DNA from: Chrysophaeum taylorii
Lineage: Eukaryota > Sar > Pelagophyceae > Pelagomonadales > Pelagomonadaceae
Reading direction: 5' to 3'
Assembly: GCA_029834535.1 (NCBI GenBank)
Contig: JAQMWT010000314.1
Coordinates: 868,001 to 932,000 of the forward strand
Length of the DNA stretch: 64,000 nucleotides
Part shown: in pieces, positions 17,838 through 57,642 of the stretch
Numbering within the stretch: the stretch's first letter is position 1
Layout of the letters: each line of letters opens with the position of its first letter
Program-made: the position numbers and the translations under genes
The notes under the pieces: generated by a model
The model's database searches: none
What the model was told of the DNA's origin: nothing
The model's input: the letters and a program-made list of their open reading frames with translations, nothing else

Positions 17838-20800
17838 ATGATGATGAAAGTGCGTTTTCTGTTGATCCTTCTGTTGATCCGTTATTTCCAGCGAGTTTTC
17901 GGAATCGCGTCACAACGCTATAAGGTTGAGGCAGCAGGGGAAATGGCGCTCGCGACGCTCCGCGATCTGATCGGAGTCGCCTCGGAGCGGGGCGACACGA
18001 AGGTAGCGCTGGTGACCGCCGAGGATTCGGAGCTGCGGGTGACGTATGGCGAGCTCGCACGGCTGTGCTTGCAGCTCGCGGGTCATTTGAGGGGGAAGTG
18101 TGGTCTTGGTGCTGGCGATGTGGCGAGCATCGTGCTCCCCCGGCGAATCAGCCTCGCGCAAGTGGTGGCGACGCTGGGGGCGATGTGCGGGCGCGTGGTG
18201 GCCGCGCCGTTGAACCCAACCTACAAGATCGAGGAGTTGGAGTTCTTCATCGGGGACGCCGAGGCCAAGGTGGTGGTCGTGGAGGCGAGCAACGAGTCGT
18301 CGAGGAGCGCGTGGGTTGCGGCGACGACGCTCGGGATTCCGACGTGCTCGATGGTGTTGGAGTGGGACGGAGGTGTGAGAATGACCTTGTCGGAGATGAT
18401 GGGGTCGTCGTCGACCTGGGATCCCGAGGAGTCGGTCGAGCCGGAGGACCTCGCGCTGGTGCTGCACACGTCGGGGACGACGTCGAGGCCCAAGCTCGTG
18501 CCGCTCACGCACCGGAACATGTGCGCCTCGGTGCGCGCCGTGGTGAAGCACTACGAGATCACGAGTGCCGACTCGACGCTGATCGTGCAGCCGCTGTTCC
18601 ACATCGGAGGGCTCGTGACGCCTTTGCTGTCGACGCTGAGCGTCGGCGGGACGGTCGCGATCGCTCGAATGTTCGACGACGCGAAGCATTGGCAGTTCGT
18701 GAGCGAGCACGAGGCGACCTGGTTCACCGCGGTCCCGACGATCCACAAGGTGTTGTTGGCCAACGCGGACCGGGACTTTGCGGACGCGTCCAAATTTCCC
18801 GGCGGGAAGCGACCCGAGCTCCGTTTTATCCGGTCGGGGTCGGCGGCGCTGCCGCCCGACCTCCTGGATCAGATCGAAGCCGCCTTCGGGGCACCGCTCA
18901 TCGAGTCCTACGGGATGACCGAGGCGGCGCAGCTGATTTGCGCCAACCCGTTGCCCCCAGGAAACCGGTACGCGGGGTCGGTCGGGATATGCGCGGGGCC
19001 GAACGGCAGGGTGTTCGACGCCGAGACCGGCAGGCGCGCCGCGGCCGACGAGGAGGGCGCCGTGGTCGGCGAGATGTGTATTTCGGGGGAGTCGGTGATG
19101 AAGGGCTACGCGCGCAACCCGACGGCCAACGAGAGCAGTTTCGTGCGGGACCCGGACGACGATGATAGTGCCGCCGCTGGCGCGGCGGTCGAATGGTTTC
19201 GGACGGGCGACCTCGTGTCGCGGACTGCCGAGGGGTACTACTCGATCGTCGGGCGGATCAAGGAGATCATAAACCGCGCCGGGGAGAAGATCGCCCCCGC
19301 GAAGTTGGACAAGGTGCTGGCCTACAAGAACCGCAAGGATTCGGTGGTGTCGTTCGGCGTGCCCGATCCGGACTTTGGGCAGGCGGTCGCGGCGGCGATT
19401 GTCTTCGACGGCGAAAAGTATCCGGATGACGCCGGCGCGTCCGACGCCGAGGCGAGGCGCCGCGCCGAGCTCATGATTAAGACTGCCCTCGACAAGCTCG
19501 CGCCCCACGAGGTTCCGACGACGGTCTACGCGATTCCTAAGGACGACGTCCCGAAGACGGCCACGGGCAAAACGAAGCGGATCAAGTGCGGCGAGTTCTG
19601 CTGCGAAACCCTGACGCCGATCGTCAAAAACGGCGTCTGGAAGAAGACGACGACGACGACGACGACGGCGGAGGAAAAAAAGGTGCTCAGCAGCGCCGCC
19701 GCCGCCGACGACAAGAATGAACAGCCATCGTCGATCGCGGCGACTCAAGCCGGGGGGCTGGACGCGGCGAGGGACAAGGCGCGCGGGGCCATCGCCGAAG
19801 CGCTGACGGCGGTGGGCGTGCCGCTGGCCGTCGGCGACGACGCGCCGCTCATGCAGTCCGGGCTGACCTCGATGATGGTGTTCGGATTCGTCAAGGCGCT
19901 CTCCGCGAACCTCGACCTCGGCGCGAGTCTGCCGCACATGCTCGTGTTCGACGCGCCGACGCCGTCCGCGCTGAGCCTCGAGCTCGCCGAGCGCATGGTC
20001 GGGTCTCAGGAGGGAGGAGGAGGACCCCCCGAAAAAAGCAAGAGCATCGCCGCGGTTGGAAAGAAGGCCGAGAAAACGGCGATTTCGGGCGCGTCGTGGC
20101 GGCTCCCGGGGTGCAGCCGGCCCTCGGAGGCGGACCCGGACGCGGCGCGGGCGGTGCTGGACGCGTGCGCGAACGTTCGGTCACCTTCGAGCCAGCGGTG
20201 GAGCGGCATCGAGGAAATCGTGGGAAAGAACGATGCCATCCTGTCTCGGTGCGAGTTTGGGGGGTACGTCGAGGGGCTCGACTACTTTGACAACGGCAAG
20301 TTTGGGATCTCCAAGGCGGAGGCGGCCCTCATGGATCCGCAGCAGCGTATGCTGATGGAACACGGGCACGCGGCCCTCGCAGCAGCAGCAGCAGCAGAGC
20401 CCGAAGAGGCCGACGTAGGGGTATTCGTGGGCGTGTCGTTCCACGACTGGGCATTGTTGACGTTGTGGAACGGCGAGGCTTCGACCAAAAAATCGGCCTT
20501 CGCGTCTTCGGGTTCTTTTACGTCGGTGGCTTCGGGCCGGCTCTCGTTCGCTTTAGGGCTGCGCGGGCCGTGCGTCACCGTCAACACGGCGTGCTCGTCG
20601 GGGTTGGTCGCTTTGCATGGCGCGCACCAGGCCGTCGCGAGCTCGGAAGCGCCGCGGGGCGCCCTCGCGGCGGCGTCGAACGTGATTCTCGAACCAACGA
20701 TTTCTATCAATTTCGCCGTCAAGGGGATCACGTCGCCCCGAGGGAGATGCCACACGTTCGACGCTTCTGCGGACGGCTATCTCAGGACGGAGGCCTGCGT

Positions 20801-23800
20801 CTGCGCTACCGTATCCGCTGTCGACGATGATGATTCGAGCCGTGCCGCGAGCCGTGCCGCTCGCGTTTTGGGGATTGCCGTGCGGCACGACGGCCGGTCG
20901 GCGAGCCTGACGGCGCCCAACGGCTCCGCGCAGCTGGCGATGCTGAGGTCTTTCGCGCAGCAGGAGAGGTCTTTTGTTGAAGCCCACGGCACGGCGACGC
21001 CCCTGGGGGATCCAATCGAGGTCGGGGCTCTCGCGCGCCTCGCCGCGAAGACCGGAACCTCGTTCCGCGTATCGGGCGCCAAGTCGTCGTACGGCCACGG
21101 CGAAGCTACGGCGGGATCCATAGGCTTGCTCGCTCTTTTGTTGGCCGTGCGAAAAGAGGACGTCGCGCCCAACGGTGCTCTCGCGAAGATCAACCCGGCC
21201 GTCAGAGACGCAGTGCTCTCGACCACGATGAACCTGGGAACCACCGAGACGACGGCGTTGCCCGGGAGTACGAAAACGGGGGGTGTCTCGTCGCTCGGCG
21301 CCTCGGGTACCATCGCGCACGCGCTCCTCGAGGGCCCCGCCAAGGAGGACGCGGTGCGCGGGGCTGGAGTCTTGGCGCGTCCGTGGCCCCTCCTCTCCCG
21401 CCATCACTTTCCCTGGACCAAGTGGACGCCGCCAACGACTCCCGCGAAACAAAAAATACATCAGCAGCAAAAGTCGTCTTCTTCTTCTTCGGTGCTGGAG
21501 ATCGTGCGGGGAATCGTGTCGCCGTTCGTGGACGGCGAGATCGACGACAAAGCCCCGCTCCTCGACGGCGGACTCGACTCGATCGTGGCGATAGAGCTCG
21601 TCGCCGAGCTCCAGGCCAAGTTCGACCCCGTCGAGCTGCCGCAGACGCTGCTGAACGACTACCCCTCGATTGCGAGCATCGCGGGCCTCGTCGCGGATAA
21701 AGCAGCGGGGGAGGAGGAGGAGGAGGAAAGAGTGGTAGAAGAAGAAGTGAAGAACGAGGAAGGCCCCGACGGGCCGACTGTCGTGGTGAAGAAAAAAAAG
21801 AAAACCGAAGATGATGGTACCGGCCCGCTCGCGCGCGACGAGCAGATATTCTTTATTCACGGCGTCGACGGCGACCCGCTCGCGATGCTGTTCCATCAGG
21901 TTGCTGCCGAACTCCGGTTTCCGTCCTCGACGGTGCGATGCATCGAAGCTCCCAAAAGAACGTGCGCTTCCCTCGAGGATCTCGCCGCCTACTACGTCGC
22001 TCGAATCAAGGAACGGCAACCGAACGGCAAGTACCGGCTCTTCGGGCACTCGTTCGGCGCCCTGATCGCCCACCAGGTCGCGCTCCAGCTCGAGCGAAAC
22101 GGAGACCGCGTGGCGGCGTTGGTGTTGGGGGACTTCGAAGTGACGTATCCGCCGTCGCGGTCGCGAAGAACCGAAGACAAAGGACGGTTCGGAATCGAAG
22201 AGTGGGAAGGAGGCGAGATCGAGGCCGTCAAGCTCGCGTGCCGCCGGTTTGGATCCTCGACGGCGGGCATGTCCTTCGACCCCGACGAATTCAGGTCGAG
22301 AGTTCTGGACGGCGCCAAGTCGCCGTCCGAGCGCCGGATGCGCGCCATGTTCCACTACATGCCGAGCTACATGCAGCGTCGCGAGTGGGACAGGCTGCTC
22401 GATCTCTGGGAACGCAACATGGAGTTTTTGCACACGGTCACGGTCCCTAAGTTTGGCCCCAAGCGCCGCGACATCTGGGAGCCCGACGGCGTCGTCAAAG
22501 GCCCGACCCTCCACCTCCGAGCCCTCGGCTCGCGAGAGTTTGCCGCGGCCGTCGACATCAACCGCAAGTACTGCGCCGACTACGCCGTCCGCGCCCTCGA
22601 CGGCCTCCACTACACCTTTCTCCAGAAGCCTAACTCGACGGCCGTCGCGAACGCGATAGACAACTTTGTCGTGGCTGCGGACCAGCATCAAGGCGGCGGC
22701 GGCGGCGGCGTCCTATCGCCCGCGCCGTCTCGCCACCAGAAACAACCACCACCTTTGGAGACGGTGGCGGGCGTCGTTTTGGCTCACGCGCGCGCGCGGC
22801 CGGCAGCGCCCTGCATCGTGGCCTGGGACCGCAAGGCCGGCGAGGTCGAGACGGTTTCGTACGCCGAATTCGCCGCGCGCGTAGCGGCGACGGCGTCGCG
22901 CCTCGCAACGACGACGCGGCCGCCGCGCGGGTTGTTGGTCGAGGGCGACGCTCTGGCCATCCTCGCGCACGCGACGACGGCCGCTCACGTGGTGGTCGTG
23001 GCGGCTATGGCTTTGGGGGCGCGCGCCGTCATGCTCAACCCCCGGCTCGCCGCCGACACGCTCGACAGGCTCTGCGCGAGCGTGGATAGGTGCCGCGCGA
23101 TGGCCGTCGGGCTCTCGCTCCGCGAAATAGGCGCGCGCGTCGCCACGAACCTCGAGACGCTCGTGATCCTGGGATCGGACGACGAGTTTCCTCCGAGCGG
23201 TGGTGGTGGTGGTGGTGGTGACCTTTTGGCTGAGGTGGTGCCGCTCCCGACCACCACCAGCACTGCGGCGGCGGTCGATGATTTGGGAATTCTCGAGCGC
23301 AACGCGGACCCCGACGCCCCGGCGGTGGTCATGTTCACCTCGGGAACGACCGGAACTCCCAAGCCCGTGGAGCGGTCGTCTCGCCACCTCTTGACCGCCG
23401 TCGACCGCATGAAGAACTTCGAGACGGCGCAGGGCTTTTGCAACAAAAACAAGCCGTCGGCGACCCTCTCGTTCCTTCCGTTGTACCACATGATGGGCAT
23501 GGCGCACAACTTCGTCCTCAACCTCCGGCTGGGGGGCAGGATTCTCGTGCACGCGGCGGCGCCCTACCTCCCGCTGACGCTCGGCCTGCTGCTAGAAGCA
23601 GCCCCCGCGCTCAAGCCGACATCGATCGAATCGATCGCGGTCGTCGCCGAGCAGCTCAGCGACACGCTCTCGGTGGGGGGGGACATGGCCCGCGACATCA
23701 AAAAGCGTCTAGAGACGGTCGCCTGCGTCAAGGTCGGGGGCTCGCCCCTCGCGACGGCCGTCGTCCACAACCTCGAAGCCCACGGCTTCCGCGTTCTCTC

Positions 23801-24649
23801 GCACTACGGCCAAACAGAACTCTGCGGCTACGTCTTGGCCTCGGTCACGCCGCGCGACGCGCCCCCGCCGCCGCCCAAAAAGCTGACCAGGGTCTCGTCC
23901 GCCGCGTCCCTCCCTTCGGACGGCCTCCGCCACGGCTTTTCGTCCATGTCTGACTTCTACGGCAACGACGAGGACCCCATCGCCTACCTGGCCGAATACG
24001 AGGCGACTCGCAACGGCGCTGCCGGCGACGAAATCGACGAGATAAACATGCTCCCCGTCGACGACGCGCTCCAAGTCCGCCTCCGCGGCGACAACGGTAA
24101 CCACCACCGCCGCCAGATTGGCGAGCTCGTGATATGCGGCCTCCATGGTACCGACCTCTACGCCACCGGCGACATCTTCCTCAAGACCGACCGGGGCTAC
24201 ACCTTCCGCGCTCGCGTCGACGGCATGCTCGTCCTCGGTTCGGGGGAGATGCTCGACCCCGCCCACCTCGAAGCCCAGCTTCTCCGCGCCCTCGTGCGCC
24301 ACGTCAAGCGCTGCTGTCTCCTCGGATCCGGACGCCCCCGTCCCGCCCTCCTCCTCGAGCTCCGCCCCGCCTCTTCGCTCGACGACGCCTTGAACGCCAT
24401 CTCCAAGGCCGTCGACGACCTCCACCTCGACCAAGCGACGGCGATCCTTCCCACCCACGTCCTCGTCTTGGACGACGCCCTCCCCACCACTCTCAAGGGC
24501 GCCGTCAACTACTCGGCCTCGGCCGACCAATTCAAGGACACCCTCGACCAAGCTGACCGCGGCACGCTCATCCCTAACTCACTCCAAGCCCTCCGTCTCA
24601 ACAACAGCAACAACAACAACAACAAACGCGGCGCCGCCGCCTTCTCCAC

Positions 24650-24686
<37 letters not shown>

Positions 24687-24704
24687 CTTGAAGAGAAAGA
24701 ATGA
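17838..24704 (+). CDS. Multidomain NRPS-like/PKS megasynthase: A-ACP-KS-ACP-TE-A
   Basis: A single 2,288-residue open frame without introns. Domains in order: adenylation domain A1 (~36-600; SGTTSRPK phosphate loop near 210, YGMTEAA, WFRTGD, GRIKEIINRAGEKI, PKTATGK near 575), closest in style to acyl/oxalyl-CoA synthetases; carrier protein (~635-720; Ser678 in SGLTSMM as phosphopantetheine site); ketosynthase (~745-1188) with the full triad Cys919 (TACSSG), His1050 (EAHGTATPLGDP) and His1087 (YGHGEA); second carrier (~1218-1290; Ser1248 in GLDSIVA); alpha/beta thioesterase (~1333-1612; Ser1405 in GHSFGA); a second adenylation domain A2 (~1640-2248; FTSGTTGTPKP near 1834, HYGQTELCG, DLYATGD, terminal PTTLKG); then a poly-Asp tail. 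No acyltransferase, KR, DH or ER domain is present, so one extension with an extender loaded in trans is likely. A domain after the thioesterase is unusual. The start at 17838 gives a hydrophobic leader; Met36 (17943) is an alternative cytosolic start. Product unknown. Confidence 0.95.
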
Positions 24705-27235: not shown

Positions 27236-27458
27236 ATCCATCCAACCACGGCGGAATGGAATTTCTCCCTTCTTGCAAGAATAAATAATTGCAACATAGA
27301 GATGTCGGGGGTTCAATCGACAATCGAGTAGTCCCGAGTAGAACCCCGAGAGTAGTACAGTAGTATTCTCTTCGCTTTCGAGTACGTCGACTTGTTTGTG
27401 GCAAAAATATTCACGCACGACAGTGAAGGCTGACAGGCAGAGTGAGCGTGCACAAAGG

Positions 27459-30317
27459 ATGAACGCAGAAGAGGCGCCCCTGCTGGTGTCATCGATTGGT
27501 GGTGGTGGTGGTGGTGGTGGTGGTGTGAAAGCGCCGCCGCCGGGGGATGAGCGGCGGTCGGACGAGCGGCGGTCATCGCGTTTCTGGCGGCCGGGGGTCG
27601 CATCGTGGGTTGTGGTCGCCCAAATTTGCGCGATCGTGCCCATCCTCGTGATGTTCGCGTACCTCGACTGGGACAACGAGAAAACGTACATGAGAATCGA
27701 GGGGTCGTTTAGCGATAATTTTACCGCGTTCGACTCGTCGCGGTGGTACAGCCCGAAGAAGCCGACGTGTCAGTGGACGGAGGGCACCGAGTACTGCGAA
27801 TCGTTGTCTCGCGCTTCGTTCTCGAGCACGTTCGGAGAACTTAATTTGTCGAATTCCCAGAGCGACGAGTGCGGGTGCGGGGGATCGGACGCGACGGCGG
27901 GACACATGCGGAGCCAGGACTATTATCTGTCCGGAAAAGTGAGCCTCGAGGCATCGTATTCAGATACGACGGGTCGGGGCGAGGCGTCGAACGATACGCT
28001 GGGCTGCGTCGGCGCTTATTCCGTACTTCGCAAGTGGGAGGGAACGACCCACAACGAGATGACGTTTTGCTGGTTCGAGATCGATACGCCTTCTGTCCAC
28101 TTCAGTTGGTGGACGGGGTACTACCTTCACACGATCGGCGCTACGCTGCCGTTCAACTCGACCGAACTCCATCTGTACGAGTACGAGTGGTCGGACGATG
28201 GTTTTCGATGGACGATCGATGGCGAGCTGTGGTACGGCCGGTCGAACTCGACGCTAGACTGCGGGAGCGGCTTGGCCTTTGAGGACGAGCACTTTCTGTA
28301 CGCTACTTATTCGTTCTACGGCGACCACGGCTGGGTCTACTACCCGTTTTTCGGCGACGAAGCAAAGAAGACTGGGTGCGACTTTTCCCACGATGCCGAA
28401 GCGACCATCAACCAACCCGTTCAACTCTTGATGCTGACGCGGCCCTACACGGCATCTGCGGTCGCGGACCCGGACCTGAGCTCGATGCTGCGGATGCGTA
28501 AATTCGAGTACTCGGCGTTCGACGAGGGCTCGGAAGAGTGGGAGGCCGAAGTCGACAAGTGGTCGGACTACAGGATCGCGTGCGAGGACGATGTGGGAGA
28601 CTACGAGGCCGACGGCGCGTGTGCGAAAAACCTCCGCGCCTTCAAGATCAGCCTCCGGATCTACACCAAGCTCTTCCGCGACGCTTTGGTGTTGATGGTT
28701 CTCGGAACGCTCGCCGCGCTCTTGCTGCGTTTCGCGAGGTTTGCGATGACATCAACACAAAACAACGTTGATAATAATAATAATGCGCCGGAAGATCTTT
28801 CGACCTGGACGTCGATTGGCTTGTTGGGATACCTTTGCCGAGACCTGAAGGGCGCGAAGCGCCATTTCGTTTATTGGGGCTCGTTGCTCGCGGGGGCGAT
28901 GCTCGCCGTCGCCAAACCCAAACCGATCGTCGTCGCGTGGGATCGACTGTCCCTCGTGTCTCACCACGGCGACACTACCACCCGTTCCACGCTCGTCTCC
29001 CAGATCGTCTGCACGTTTGTGGTGATGCAGGTATTCCACGTCGTCTGCCTCGCGGTCGCGAAACTCCCGAAAGACAACCGGTTCGCGTCCAACAAACTCG
29101 AAGCGTTCTCGAACGATCCGGCTTTCGTGTCCCGCATCGGGTATATCGTCCCCTGCCACAAGTCCGAGGCTGAAATAGGGCGCACCGTGCGGTCGATTCT
29201 AGACAGCGGAATTTCGCCGGAAAACGTGTGCGTCGTGGACAACGCGAACCAACCCACCCCCCCCGACAAGACGCGCGAGGTCGTCGCGATGGTCCACCCC
29301 GACGTCCAATACGTCTACGTCCCCCAGGGACTCAAGACCAACGCGCTCTACGTCGGCACGAAGCACCTCCCCCCAACCGTCGACTTCGTCGCGCACCTCG
29401 ACGACGACACCATCATCCCCGGCGCCGACATGGTCTACGACGCGTCTCGCTTCGACGACCCGAGGGTGTCTGCCGTGTCCTACGGCATCGAGATCGAGCG
29501 CACGGGCCCGGTCCAGAATCTCGTCGATTTCGAGTTCCGGCTCTGGTCGCACTGGCGATACTACAGGGCCCGCACCTCCACCGCCTGGTACTGCCACGGC
29601 ATTATCGGGATTTGGCGCCGCGATCGCTTCGAGCGCGCCATGGCCCAACACCCCTTCATGCCCTTTGGGGAAGATGGCTGGCTCGGCGCGATCGTCCTCT
29701 GCGACGACCAACGGATAGAGCAGGAAATGCGGTGCGCCGTCACGACGTTCGCCCCCGACCGCCTCGTGCCCGCGATCCACTACCAAAAGCGCCTCCAGGG
29801 TTACGGCGCCTCCACAATCTTCCACCAGCGCAGCAAGCGCTGGTTTGTCAACGCGCCGCGCCGCCTCGTCATTCGTGCCCTTCTCTGGCTCACCTACGAC
29901 GCTGGAACCGTGGCCCAGCAGCTCCTCTTCCGCGTCGAGCTCCTCCGGCACGTCGCCGTCACCCTCATCGCCCTCCTCTACCCGCTCTTCGTCATCCGCG
30001 TCCTCTACGACGAGTCCTGGACGGAATTCCTCCTCCTCAAGGCCGTGATCGTTTTGACCGACTACCTCATGTACGCCACCATCAATTACGCCATCTGGGA
30101 CCAGTGCAACCGCGTCGCCCTCGACACCGTCCTCCTCTACCCCTTTTACCGCCTCTTCCTCCGCCTCTGCATTGTCCTCGGACACTGGCGCTGCGTCCTC
30201 TGGTACATGCCTTTCGTCGAGATGCGCACCTGCCGATACCACGCCAAGCAACCGAAGTGCGATTTCCGCGTCCTCCGCCGCTGGTTCTCGAATCGCCTCC
30301 TCCTCGACACCAAGTGA
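27459..30317 (+). CDS. GH16-like domain fused to processive family-2 glycosyltransferase
   Basis: A 952-residue membrane protein. After a cytosolic tail with EEAPLL and a Gly run comes a membrane segment (~47-69), then a large region (~78-358) with a GH16/laminarinase fold signature (SGKVSLEASYS, EYEWSDDGFRWTIDGELWYG, Asn-glycosylation sites, paired Cys). Next are a membrane segment (~405-430) and a GT2 catalytic domain (~550-800): IGYIVPCHKSE, DDD at 648-650, GED at 737-739, and R791-x-x-R-W795 as the R/QxxRW product-binding motif. Several C-terminal helices follow, as in hyaluronan and chitin synthases. The GH16 catalytic motif ExDxxE is not intact (EMTFCW in its place), so that domain may bind rather than cut glycan. 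The start is the Met at 27459, matching the di-leucine N-termini of its neighbours. It probably makes and extrudes a beta-glycan, modified by the flanking acyltransferases. The polymer is unknown. Confidence 0.88.
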   Translation: MNAEEAPLLVSSIGGGGGGGGGVKAPPPGDERRSDERRSSRFWRPGVASWVVVAQICAIVPILVMFAYLDWDNEKTYMRIEGSFSDNFTAFDSSRWYSPKKPTCQWTEGTEYCESLSRASFSSTFGELNLSNSQSDECGCGGSDATAGHMRSQDYYLSGKVSLEASYSDTTGRGEASNDTLGCVGAYSVLRKWEGTTHNEMTFCWFEIDTPSVHFSWWTGYYLHTIGATLPFNSTELHLYEYEWSDDGFRWTIDGELWYGRSNSTLDCGSGLAFEDEHFLYATYSFYGDHGWVYYPFFGDEAKKTGCDFSHDAEATINQPVQLLMLTRPYTASAVADPDLSSMLRMRKFEYSAFDEGSEEWEAEVDKWSDYRIACEDDVGDYEADGACAKNLRAFKISLRIYTKLFRDALVLMVLGTLAALLLRFARFAMTSTQNNVDNNNNAPEDLSTWTSIGLLGYLCRDLKGAKRHFVYWGSLLAGAMLAVAKPKPIVVAWDRLSLVSHHGDTTTRSTLVSQIVCTFVVMQVFHVVCLAVAKLPKDNRFASNKLEAFSNDPAFVSRIGYIVPCHKSEAEIGRTVRSILDSGISPENVCVVDNANQPTPPDKTREVVAMVHPDVQYVYVPQGLKTNALYVGTKHLPPTVDFVAHLDDDTIIPGADMVYDASRFDDPRVSAVSYGIEIERTGPVQNLVDFEFRLWSHWRYYRARTSTAWYCHGIIGIWRRDRFERAMAQHPFMPFGEDGWLGAIVLCDDQRIEQEMRCAVTTFAPDRLVPAIHYQKRLQGYGASTIFHQRSKRWFVNAPRRLVIRALLWLTYDAGTVAQQLLFRVELLRHVAVTLIALLYPLFVIRVLYDESWTEFLLLKAVIVLTDYLMYATINYAIWDQCNRVALDTVLLYPFYRLFLRLCIVLGHWRCVLWYMPFVEMRTCRYHAKQPKCDFRVLRRWFSNRLLLDTK

Positions 30318-55803: not shown

Positions 55804-57642
55804 CTATGGCGCGCGTTGGAGCAGCAGATACTGGTTGACGCTGCCGAGGAGCTGCTTGGATGTGAAGGGCTTTGCAATGACCGCGTCGAAGTTGGGCTGA
55901 ATGGTGACCATATCGACGCTGGCGGTGCAGGCGATGATGACGGGTCGGGACTTACGTTGGCCGTAGCGAGCAAAGAAGGCCCGAGCCATTTCGAGTCCGC
56001 CGAGCACGGGCATGTTGATGTCGGTCAGGATAACGTCGATTTTGGGGTGTTGCGAATCGAGGTTGTGGATAATTTTTTCGATGCCCTCCTTGCCGTTGTT
56101 GGCGACGTCGACGTCGTGGCCGGCCTTGGCGAGCGTGCGAACGACGAGATGGCGAAGGGCGATCGTGTCCTCGACGACGAGGATCTTGGCGCGCTGGAGG
56201 ACGGGCGGCTTCGCGGCGAAGTGGTTCGGTGCCTCGCTGGATGATTTGCACGGCACCGTGAACCAAAAATGCGAGCCGGGAGATAGGGGCTCGTAGCCGC
56301 ACTCGCCGCCTAAAATCCGCGTGCGGATCGTGACTCCGTAGAGGCCCACGCCGCTCCCTTTGATTGTTGACGTCGAAGTCGGGTTGGTGATGACGCCGCC
56401 GAAGAGCTGGGCGCGTTTTTCTTCGGGCACGCCGCAGCCCGTGTCCTTGACGCTCACGAGGAGACACGAGCCGTCCGGCGACGAAATGTTCACGTCGATG
56501 CTGCCGGCCCGCGTGTGCTTGGTCGCGTTCGTCAGATAGCTCAGGATGTTTTGGATGAGCCAGTCGCGGTCGGTGGTAACAAATTCCGACACGTTGGGCG
56601 AGATTCTGATGTTGACCGGCACGGAGGCCGTCGTGGCGGCGATCAGCCGCGTGCACTTCTCCTTGATCGTTTCGACGCGAAACGACGATTCTTTAGCGAC
56701 CATGCTCCCGGTATGCGCGATCTCCAAGGCCTGCATGACCATCAACCGAAGAAATTCCGCCGCGGACTCGGCCTCGTTGAGGAGATCTCTCGCGTTGTCG
56801 AGGTCCCTGATGGCGATTGCCTTTTGAGTCAATTCCAACGATAGCAAAAAGCTCGACACGGGCGTCTTGATATCGTGCGCGACGGTCGCCAAGTGGTCTA
56901 TGCGCGCCTGGTTGATCTCGGCGTATTGGAGCGCGGCCTCGGCCTTGGCGTCCCGAGCGAGCCGCGACAGCAGCACGAACCCGTTCGACTTGCGGAAAAT
57001 AACCGCGTCGAGCTCCTTGAACCGAGACGCGTGAGCCTCGAGCCGAATCCGAGTCACGGCCGCTTCGACGTCCTCCACGAGCAGGGCGTTTTTGAGCTTG
57101 ACGGCGTCGGACGCGCTCACGCATTCGAAGATGTTGCCGAGCGTCGACCGCGCGAACAGCGTCGCGTCACCAATGTACTGCTCGAAGCCTCCGACCTCGT
57201 TATGGAGAGATATGCACATCCCAAATCCCGTCGTCGAGTCGTTGTCGACGAGCATGTCGTTCGTCAAAAATATGTTCGTGAGCTCGGCGGGCGAGTAGCG
57301 CGTGACGGCTTTGAACACGGGCAGCCAACGCAGCAGCGCGAGGGCCGTCAACGCGCTCGCGACCGCCGTCAGCGGCTTGGTCAACCGCAGCGACCACCGA
57401 AAAAACGCGCCCCCGAGATGCGTCAGCCCGCACGAAAAGATGAACAGCATGAACAACACGCTGTGCATCTTTGCCTCGTCCGACACGCGCCGCGACATGT
57501 GCCGCGAGGACAGTCTGAGCGTCAACGCGATTTCCATGGGGATCAGAAAGTACGACACGGCGATGATTATGTCGCACGCCGCCTCCCAGCTCCATGCCTC
57601 CACTCCAAGGCTCGTCGTCTTCGTCGTCGTTGCCTGCCGCAT
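55804..57642 (-). CDS. Hybrid histidine kinase with ethylene-receptor-like transmembrane sensor
   Basis: A 612-residue membrane kinase. The N-terminal ~110 residues form three membrane helices with the ethylene-binding signature: Asp24, Tyr31, Ile34, Pro35, Glu37 (CDIIIAVSYFLIPMEI) and Cys71, His75 (SCGLTH), the same spacing within each helix as Asp25/Tyr32/Ile35/Pro36/Glu38 and Cys65/His69 of plant ETR1. Those Cys and His hold the copper that binds ethylene. A region of about 120 residues follows, not clearly a GAF domain. Then come the histidine-kinase dimerisation helix (His256 in VAHDIKTPVS), the ATPase (N box NILSYLTNATKHT, G1 VKDTGCGVP, G2 GSGVGLYG) and a receiver domain (~480-605) with phospho-acceptor Asp541 (LTDINMP) and Lys in IAKPFT. 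All catalytic boxes are intact, so it should be an active hybrid kinase. Ethylene sensing itself is inferred. Confidence 0.9.
   Translation of the reverse strand: MRQATTTKTTSLGVEAWSWEAACDIIIAVSYFLIPMEIALTLRLSSRHMSRRVSDEAKMHSVLFMLFIFSCGLTHLGGAFFRWSLRLTKPLTAVASALTALALLRWLPVFKAVTRYSPAELTNIFLTNDMLVDNDSTTGFGMCISLHNEVGGFEQYIGDATLFARSTLGNIFECVSASDAVKLKNALLVEDVEAAVTRIRLEAHASRFKELDAVIFRKSNGFVLLSRLARDAKAEAALQYAEINQARIDHLATVAHDIKTPVSSFLLSLELTQKAIAIRDLDNARDLLNEAESAAEFLRLMVMQALEIAHTGSMVAKESSFRVETIKEKCTRLIAATTASVPVNIRISPNVSEFVTTDRDWLIQNILSYLTNATKHTRAGSIDVNISSPDGSCLLVSVKDTGCGVPEEKRAQLFGGVITNPTSTSTIKGSGVGLYGVTIRTRILGGECGYEPLSPGSHFWFTVPCKSSSEAPNHFAAKPPVLQRAKILVVEDTIALRHLVVRTLAKAGHDVDVANNGKEGIEKIIHNLDSQHPKIDVILTDINMPVLGGLEMARAFFARYGQRKSRPVIIACTASVDMVTIQPNFDAVIAKPFTSKQLLGSVNQYLLLQRAP

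What the first reader, a model, noticed from the sequence alone, without database searches (positions are those of the whole stretch)
17838..24704. Megasynthase with a second adenylation domain after its thioesterase (A-ACP-KS-ACP-TE-A)
One uninterrupted 2,288-residue protein carries two complete-looking adenylation domains, two carrier proteins with their Ser, a KS with the full Cys-His-His triad, and a GHSFGA thioesterase. In known assembly lines the thioesterase is normally last; here a full adenylation domain follows it with no carrier behind. There is no acyltransferase or reductive domain. This suggests a single-extension synthase that starts from an activated acid (A1), takes an extender in trans, releases by TE, and uses A2 either to re-activate the released product or to load a partner protein.
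Basis: partly seen in the sequence, partly recalled or inferred. Interest (0 to 1): 0.82.

Follow-up and report, generated by a model that had tools for sequence, protein, structure and literature searches.

The report
Algal polyketide synthase, adenylation after thioesterase
A one-module polyketide-making enzyme of pelagophyte algae carries two different acid-activating domains, one at each end, the second sitting unusually after the release domain; the arrangement is real and shared by related algae, but a bacterial peptide synthetase already shows a similar trick.

Summary
One open frame (17838-24704, start probably 17943) encodes A1-ACP1-KS-ACP2-TE-A2; Pfam finds no AT or reductive domain. 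It is no assembly accident: four sequences carry the whole order (window, P0002, P0003, P0004). P0007 (Aureoumbra) carries KS to A2, and P0005 (Aureococcus) is a damaged model of the same kind of gene, so the TE-A2 join occurs in both pelagophyte orders. Core catalytic letters are kept, apart from two damaged models.

The two A domains have different origins. A1 is closest to oxalate-CoA ligases. A2 groups with the N-terminal loading A domains of this genome's multimodular AT-less PKSs. The KS falls in the AT-less pelagophyte clade too.

Best reading: a unimodular trans-AT synthase. A1 charges ACP1, a trans-AT malonylates ACP2, KS makes one condensation, TE releases. A2 is a displaced loading domain that charges a carrier not next to it. 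The obafluorin synthetase ObiF (C-A-PCP-TE-MLP-A) is a precedent for an A domain after a TE. Substrates, A2's partner and product are unknown. New variant of a known kind.

The parts
17838..17942 (+). 35-codon leader of the ORF, probably not translated or not conserved (start likely ATG at 17943)
   Evidence: GC3 0.54 against 0.69-0.94 in the 100-codon blocks; no counterpart in the other models
17943..24704 (+). Whole coding frame A1-ACP1-KS-ACP2-TE-A2, one uninterrupted frame in this assembly
   Evidence: one full-length place in the genome
17997..19580 (+). A1, AAE3/oxalate-CoA-ligase-like adenylation domain with core motifs HTSGTTSRPK and PKTATGKTKR
   Evidence: motifs in 6 of 6 rows that cover them, one conservative change in P0003
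19773..20012 (+). ACP1, carrier with the serine motif GLTS
   Evidence: residues 646-1164 and 631-1169 match ACP-KS stretches of C28 and C557
20067..21353 (+). KS, triad Cys919, His in EAHGT, His in GH(G/C/T)E
   Evidence: triad in 5 of 5 extracted rows; tree
21480..21722 (+). ACP2, extension-type carrier (GLDS)
21810..22667 (+). TE, with Ser (GHSFGA), probable Asp (LGDFEV) and His (GLHYTF); the most conserved domain of the protein. Which Asp and His are catalytic is assigned by motif, recalled
   Evidence: 76-84% identity to the four orthologs that cover it intact
22668..22739 (+). TE-A2 linker, low complexity, open in frame
22740..24587 (+). A2, PF23562-type adenylation domain with A3, A5, A7, A8 and A10 (KGAV) motifs (motif names recalled); no carrier behind it

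Best explanation
A unimodular, AT-less (trans-AT type) polyketide synthase. Inferred steps: (1) A1 adenylates a carboxylic acid and charges ACP1; (2) a free-standing malonyl transferase charges ACP2; (3) KS makes one decarboxylative condensation, leaving an unreduced beta-keto chain on ACP2; (4) TE releases it. A2 is a loading adenylation domain of the kind that stands before ACP-KS in the multimodular PKSs of these algae. Here it stands behind the TE, with an AAE3-type A1 in the N-terminal slot. A2 most likely activates a second acid and charges a carrier that is not its neighbour: a discrete ACP or another synthase's carrier, as in ObiF. Shown here: domain order, motif conservation, and the kinship of KS and A2. 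Inferred: every chemical step and A2's partner.
For: Domain content with no AT or reductive domain. Whole order in 4 sequences, window included, and TE-A2 in P0005 and P0007, in Sarcinochrysidales and Pelagomonadales. Catalytic motifs kept. KS inside the AT-less pelagophyte clade, SH-aLRT 99, with green-algal KSs next, 87. A2 with loading A domains and other A proteins of this genome on one side of a branch, 100/100, apart from A1 and from four PF23562-bearing database ligases. All four multimodular AT-less PKS frames of the genome carry a PF23562 A match just before their first KS. ACP1's GLTS resembles the GL[ST]S of 4 of 4 pelagophyte loading ACPs that could be read. The two best further places in the genome run from the loading ACP through KS1 of C28 and C557. 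AT matches in frames without a KS match at C191, C595 and C362. ObiF precedent.
Against: The ACP tree does not group ACP1 with the loading ACPs (3 of 19 inner branches well supported, long branches). The first ACP of green-algal P0011 has GLDS, and the A-ACP membrane proteins have G[LIV]DS, so the motif is not a strict mark. ACP-KS matches also include extension units, such as C557:67759-69369. The A2 subclade is sister to, not within, the loading A domains. No substrate, partner carrier or product is known. No AT was tied to this synthase.
Confidence: 0.5

Rival explanations
1. Release and re-activation: TE frees the acid and A2 adenylates that same product to pass it to CoA or another carrier (one of the first reader's two options).
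For: A2 follows the TE directly and has no carrier behind it; a complete A fold including the C-terminal subdomain.
Against: Hydrolysing a thioester only to remake it costs ATP (inference); A2's kin are A domains paired with carriers.
Confidence: 0.15
2. A2 loads the extender: it adenylates a free malonate-like acid and charges ACP2, taking the place of an AT, so the synthase runs on two free acids.
For: No AT in the protein; ACP2 is the nearest carrier upstream of A2.
Against: In the four multimodular AT-less PKS frames of the genome the PF23562 A match lies at the loading position, and separate AT matches exist; pocket residues for malonate were not tested.
Confidence: 0.12
3. A2 and A1 both charge ACP1, in the same chain or across a dimer, giving the synthase two alternative starter acids.
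For: ACP1 has the loading-type motif, and ACP1-KS aligns with loading ACP-KS1 of C28 and C557.
Against: ACP tree unresolved; ACP1 sits next to A1, far from A2 in sequence.
Confidence: 0.15
4. Gene-model or assembly fusion of two neighbouring genes.
For: Variable low-complexity linker near 22.67-22.74 kb.
Against: Same uninterrupted TE-A2 join in P0002, P0003, P0004 and P0007; high GC3 runs through the linker.
Confidence: 0.03

Closest known systems
Multimodular AT-less (trans-AT) PKSs of pelagophytes, as described for Chrysophaeum taylorii (PMC10366177), and of other algae (PMC4661987)
   Same: KS clade, lack of AT, acid-loading A domain of the PF23562 class, loading-type ACP motif
   Different: One module only; N-terminal A is AAE3-like; the PF23562 A stands at the C-terminus behind the TE
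ObiF, obafluorin NRPS of Pseudomonas fluorescens (PMC6668435): C-A-PCP-TE-MLP-A
   Same: A second A domain follows the TE; there it loads a free-standing carrier (ObiD)
   Different: NRPS with condensation and MbtH-like domains; no KS in the order given
Pks13 of mycobacteria (NCBIfam NF040607, 280.7 bits against a cut-off of 2100, best stretch 664-1176); order ACP-KS-AT-ACP-TE recalled, no call
   Same: ACP-KS and ACP-TE around one condensation, with acid activation by a ligase
   Different: Has an AT; its ligase is a separate protein (recalled)
Oxalate-CoA ligase AAE3 (PDB 6qjz, 5ie0)
   Same: Closest solved relatives of A1
   Different: A separate CoA ligase; the His of 5ie0 in 'mteatHlmss' aligns with Gln in A1. 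That this His contacts oxalate is recalled
Haptophyte type I PKSs with an A domain, one with two thioesterases (PMC7073580, passages)
   Same: A domain and TE in a single-module algal PKS
   Different: Reductive domains; domain order drawn in a figure that is not held

Membership tests
AT-less / trans-AT type I PKS | KS and ACP without an integrated AT | tested here: met
   No AT in Pfam; KS matches end at 1165-1186 in the listed solved KSs and the ACP2 Pfam match begins at 1232, which leaves no room for an AT
AT-less / trans-AT type I PKS | Active KS triad Cys-His-His | tested here: met
   5 of 5 extracted KS rows; P0006 also keeps it
AT-less / trans-AT type I PKS | KS groups with other AT-less algal KSs | tested here: met
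   SH-aLRT 99, quick method, hand-picked rows
AT-less / trans-AT type I PKS | Free-standing AT that serves the ACP | tested here: inconclusive
   AT matches in frames without a KS match exist; no link to this synthase
ObiF-type synthetase | A domain C-terminal to the TE | tested here: met
ObiF-type synthetase | Condensation and MbtH-like domains | tested here: not met
   Neither in the Pfam list at E up to 0.001
Pks13-like condensing synthase | AT between KS and second ACP | tested here: not met
AAE3 oxalate-CoA ligase (A1) | Closest sequence relationship | tested here: met
   Best matches among solved structures
AAE3 oxalate-CoA ligase (A1) | Oxalate specificity | not testable with these tools
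   Needs an assay; binding residues only recalled
PF23562 adenylation class (A2) | AMP-binding_C_3 C-terminal subdomain above gathering score | tested here: met
   42.5 bits against 20.8
FAAL | PF23024 C-terminal domain (link to FAAL recalled) | tested here: not met
   PF23024 not in the Pfam list at E up to 0.001

The most novel reading that the evidence does not exclude
A self-contained Claisen synthase fed by two free acids: A1 loads the starter on ACP1 and A2 loads a malonate-like extender acid on ACP2, so that adenylation replaces the acyltransferase.
Probability: 0.12. Interest if true: 0.85.

Novelty: new variant of a known kind. Interest (0 to 1): 0.58.

Why it matters
Shelest et al. 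[quoted passage not shown] they use 'iterative' for unimodular enzymes. A one-module AT-less PKS found in both pelagophyte orders is a candidate for that form, though whether it works iteratively is not known. It also gives a eukaryotic PKS case of an adenylation domain behind a TE, as ObiF does for NRPSs. It is a single uninterrupted frame of under 7 kb, and relatives occur in the bloom-forming Aureococcus and Aureoumbra, so it is a tractable entry to algal type I PKSs, whose functions and products are in almost all cases unknown (PMC4661987).

Tried and rejected

Papers: PMC10366177, parts 1-3 of 5 read (figures not held, so its Fig. 2a may draw this gene); PMC4661987, passages and section 7; PMC6668435, PMC10756674, PMC10794256, PMC7073580, passages; other papers only as search listings. 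I found no paper that describes the exact architecture (open-licence papers only). This is a weak test: the order strings matched no paper at all.

Full report
Observation. The ORF at 17838-24704 is real and uninterrupted. Pfam finds A, KS, ACP, TE and a second A with a PF23562 C-terminal subdomain, and no AT or reductive domain. ACP1 has no Pfam hit of its own but shows a GLTS serine motif in 6 of 6 rows that cover it. The first 35 codons have GC3 0.54, against 0.69-0.94 in the 100-codon blocks, and no counterpart in the other models, so translation probably starts at 17943.

Conservation. The first protein search returned 815 hits, of which 120 were listed; the first six (P0002-P0007) share this architecture in whole or part. 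P0002, P0003 and P0004 are full length. P0005 (Aureococcus anophagefferens, 'ligase') is a damaged model, 94% identical to P0004 over aligned residues. P0006 loses similarity after the KS. P0007 (Aureoumbra lagunensis) begins just before the KS. A search with the TE-A2 part gave 43 hits: P0002, P0003, P0004, P0005 and P0007 score 672-1206 bits; the other 38 score at most 57 bits, cover 6-29% and list no PF23562 (only the 7979 candidates sharing most words were scored). Aureoumbra and Aureococcus belong to different orders, the two orders of the class according to PMC10366177. A partial A2 comes from the pelagophyte genus Chrysoreinhardia (P0122). Identity to the window, in the four orthologs intact there (P0002, P0003, P0004, P0007), is 76-84% for TE and 48-58% for A2; for A1 it is 71-77% in P0002, P0003, P0004 and P0006. 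P0006 is left out of the TE and A2 figures because it has lost its similarity there; P0005 was not in that count.

Active sites. KS Cys-His-His is present in 5 of 5 extracted rows. In one search, P0005 lacks the first KS His and A2's A5 and A8 motifs, which fits its damaged model, and P0006 has no ACP2, TE or A2 match. The other rows that cover a motif keep it, with small variants such as P0003 TTAAPK, P0002 HFGQTE and P0007 HYGSTE.

Origin of the parts. The genome (G000, 70.8 Mb, 697 contigs) holds 45 KS matches and four multimodular AT-less PKS frames at C557, C546, C407 and C28. Each has a PF23562 A match just before its first KS. In a tree of 32 hand-picked A domains, A2 (6 rows), the loading A domains (5 rows) and 5 other A proteins of this genome lie on one side of a branch at 100/100. 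A1 (5 rows) lies on the other side, as do four database ligases that carry PF23562 (rooted for drawing only). In a tree of 59 KS rows (one of 60 extracted was dropped as too short; partial profile matches were dropped earlier and not counted; 20 proteins and 16 own loci chosen by hand; quick method), the window KS family lies inside the AT-less pelagophyte clade at 99. A whole-protein search of the genome finds one full-length place; the next best is C28, 40% identity over residues 646-1164.

ACP evidence, both ways. Loading ACPs of C557, C407, C28 and P0009 read GL[ST]S, as does the first ACP of green-algal P0102; the extension ACPs that the pattern picked out in those pelagophyte PKSs read GLDS (C28, P0009), GIDS (C557) and, in a second one of P0009, DVDS. 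The C546 loading ACP was not found by the pattern. P0011's ACPs read GLDS and the A-ACP membrane proteins G[LIV]DS. The ACP tree does not group ACP1 with the loading ACPs. ACP-KS matches begin at loading ACPs for C28 and C557 but occur at extension units too.

Comparison with the known. ObiF of P. fluorescens is C-A-PCP-TE-MLP-A, and its last A domain loads a free carrier, ObiD (PMC6668435). So an A domain behind a TE has a tested precedent. The C. taylorii paper reports AT-less PKSs, all with an N-terminal A-like domain, and does not mention a C-terminal one in the parts read; its figure could not be seen.

Verdict. A conserved, probably functional, one-module AT-less PKS in which the loading-type A domain stands behind the TE and an AAE3-like A domain has the N-terminal slot. 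The role of A2 is the open question; I favour loading of a carrier that is not its neighbour.

Noticed in passing
G000:C564:90-111 kb (L024, L025, L027): Repeated PKS units, three of them about 4.9 kb apart with further partial KS matches beyond; the one read (L024) is ACP-ACP-KS by motif. The PF23562 search lists no match on this contig. A possible partner lacking its own loading domain.
   Followed up: partly
G000:C216, C366, C529, C365 (L029, L031, L032, L035): A (PF23562) followed by a GxDSL carrier motif; L029, L031 and L032 then run on, by eye, into a multi-pass membrane part. Pfam gave only the A domain in the two scanned, L029 and L031.
   Followed up: partly
G000:C595:18291-19004 (L060): Frame with an acyltransferase domain by Pfam and, by eye only, a thioesterase-like part before it; candidate trans-AT.
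   Followed up: partly
G000:C468 (L040): PF23562 A domain followed by a carrier motif and a BD-FAE hydrolase domain.
   Followed up: no
G000:C10 and C297: KS and AT matches at nearly the same coordinates with identical scores; possibly two haplotypes of one region.
   Followed up: no
window 55804-57642 (-): Hybrid histidine kinase with an ethylene-receptor ETR1-like N-terminal domain.
   Followed up: no
window 27396-30317 (+): Frame with a GH16-like part and a family 2 glycosyltransferase part.
   Followed up: no
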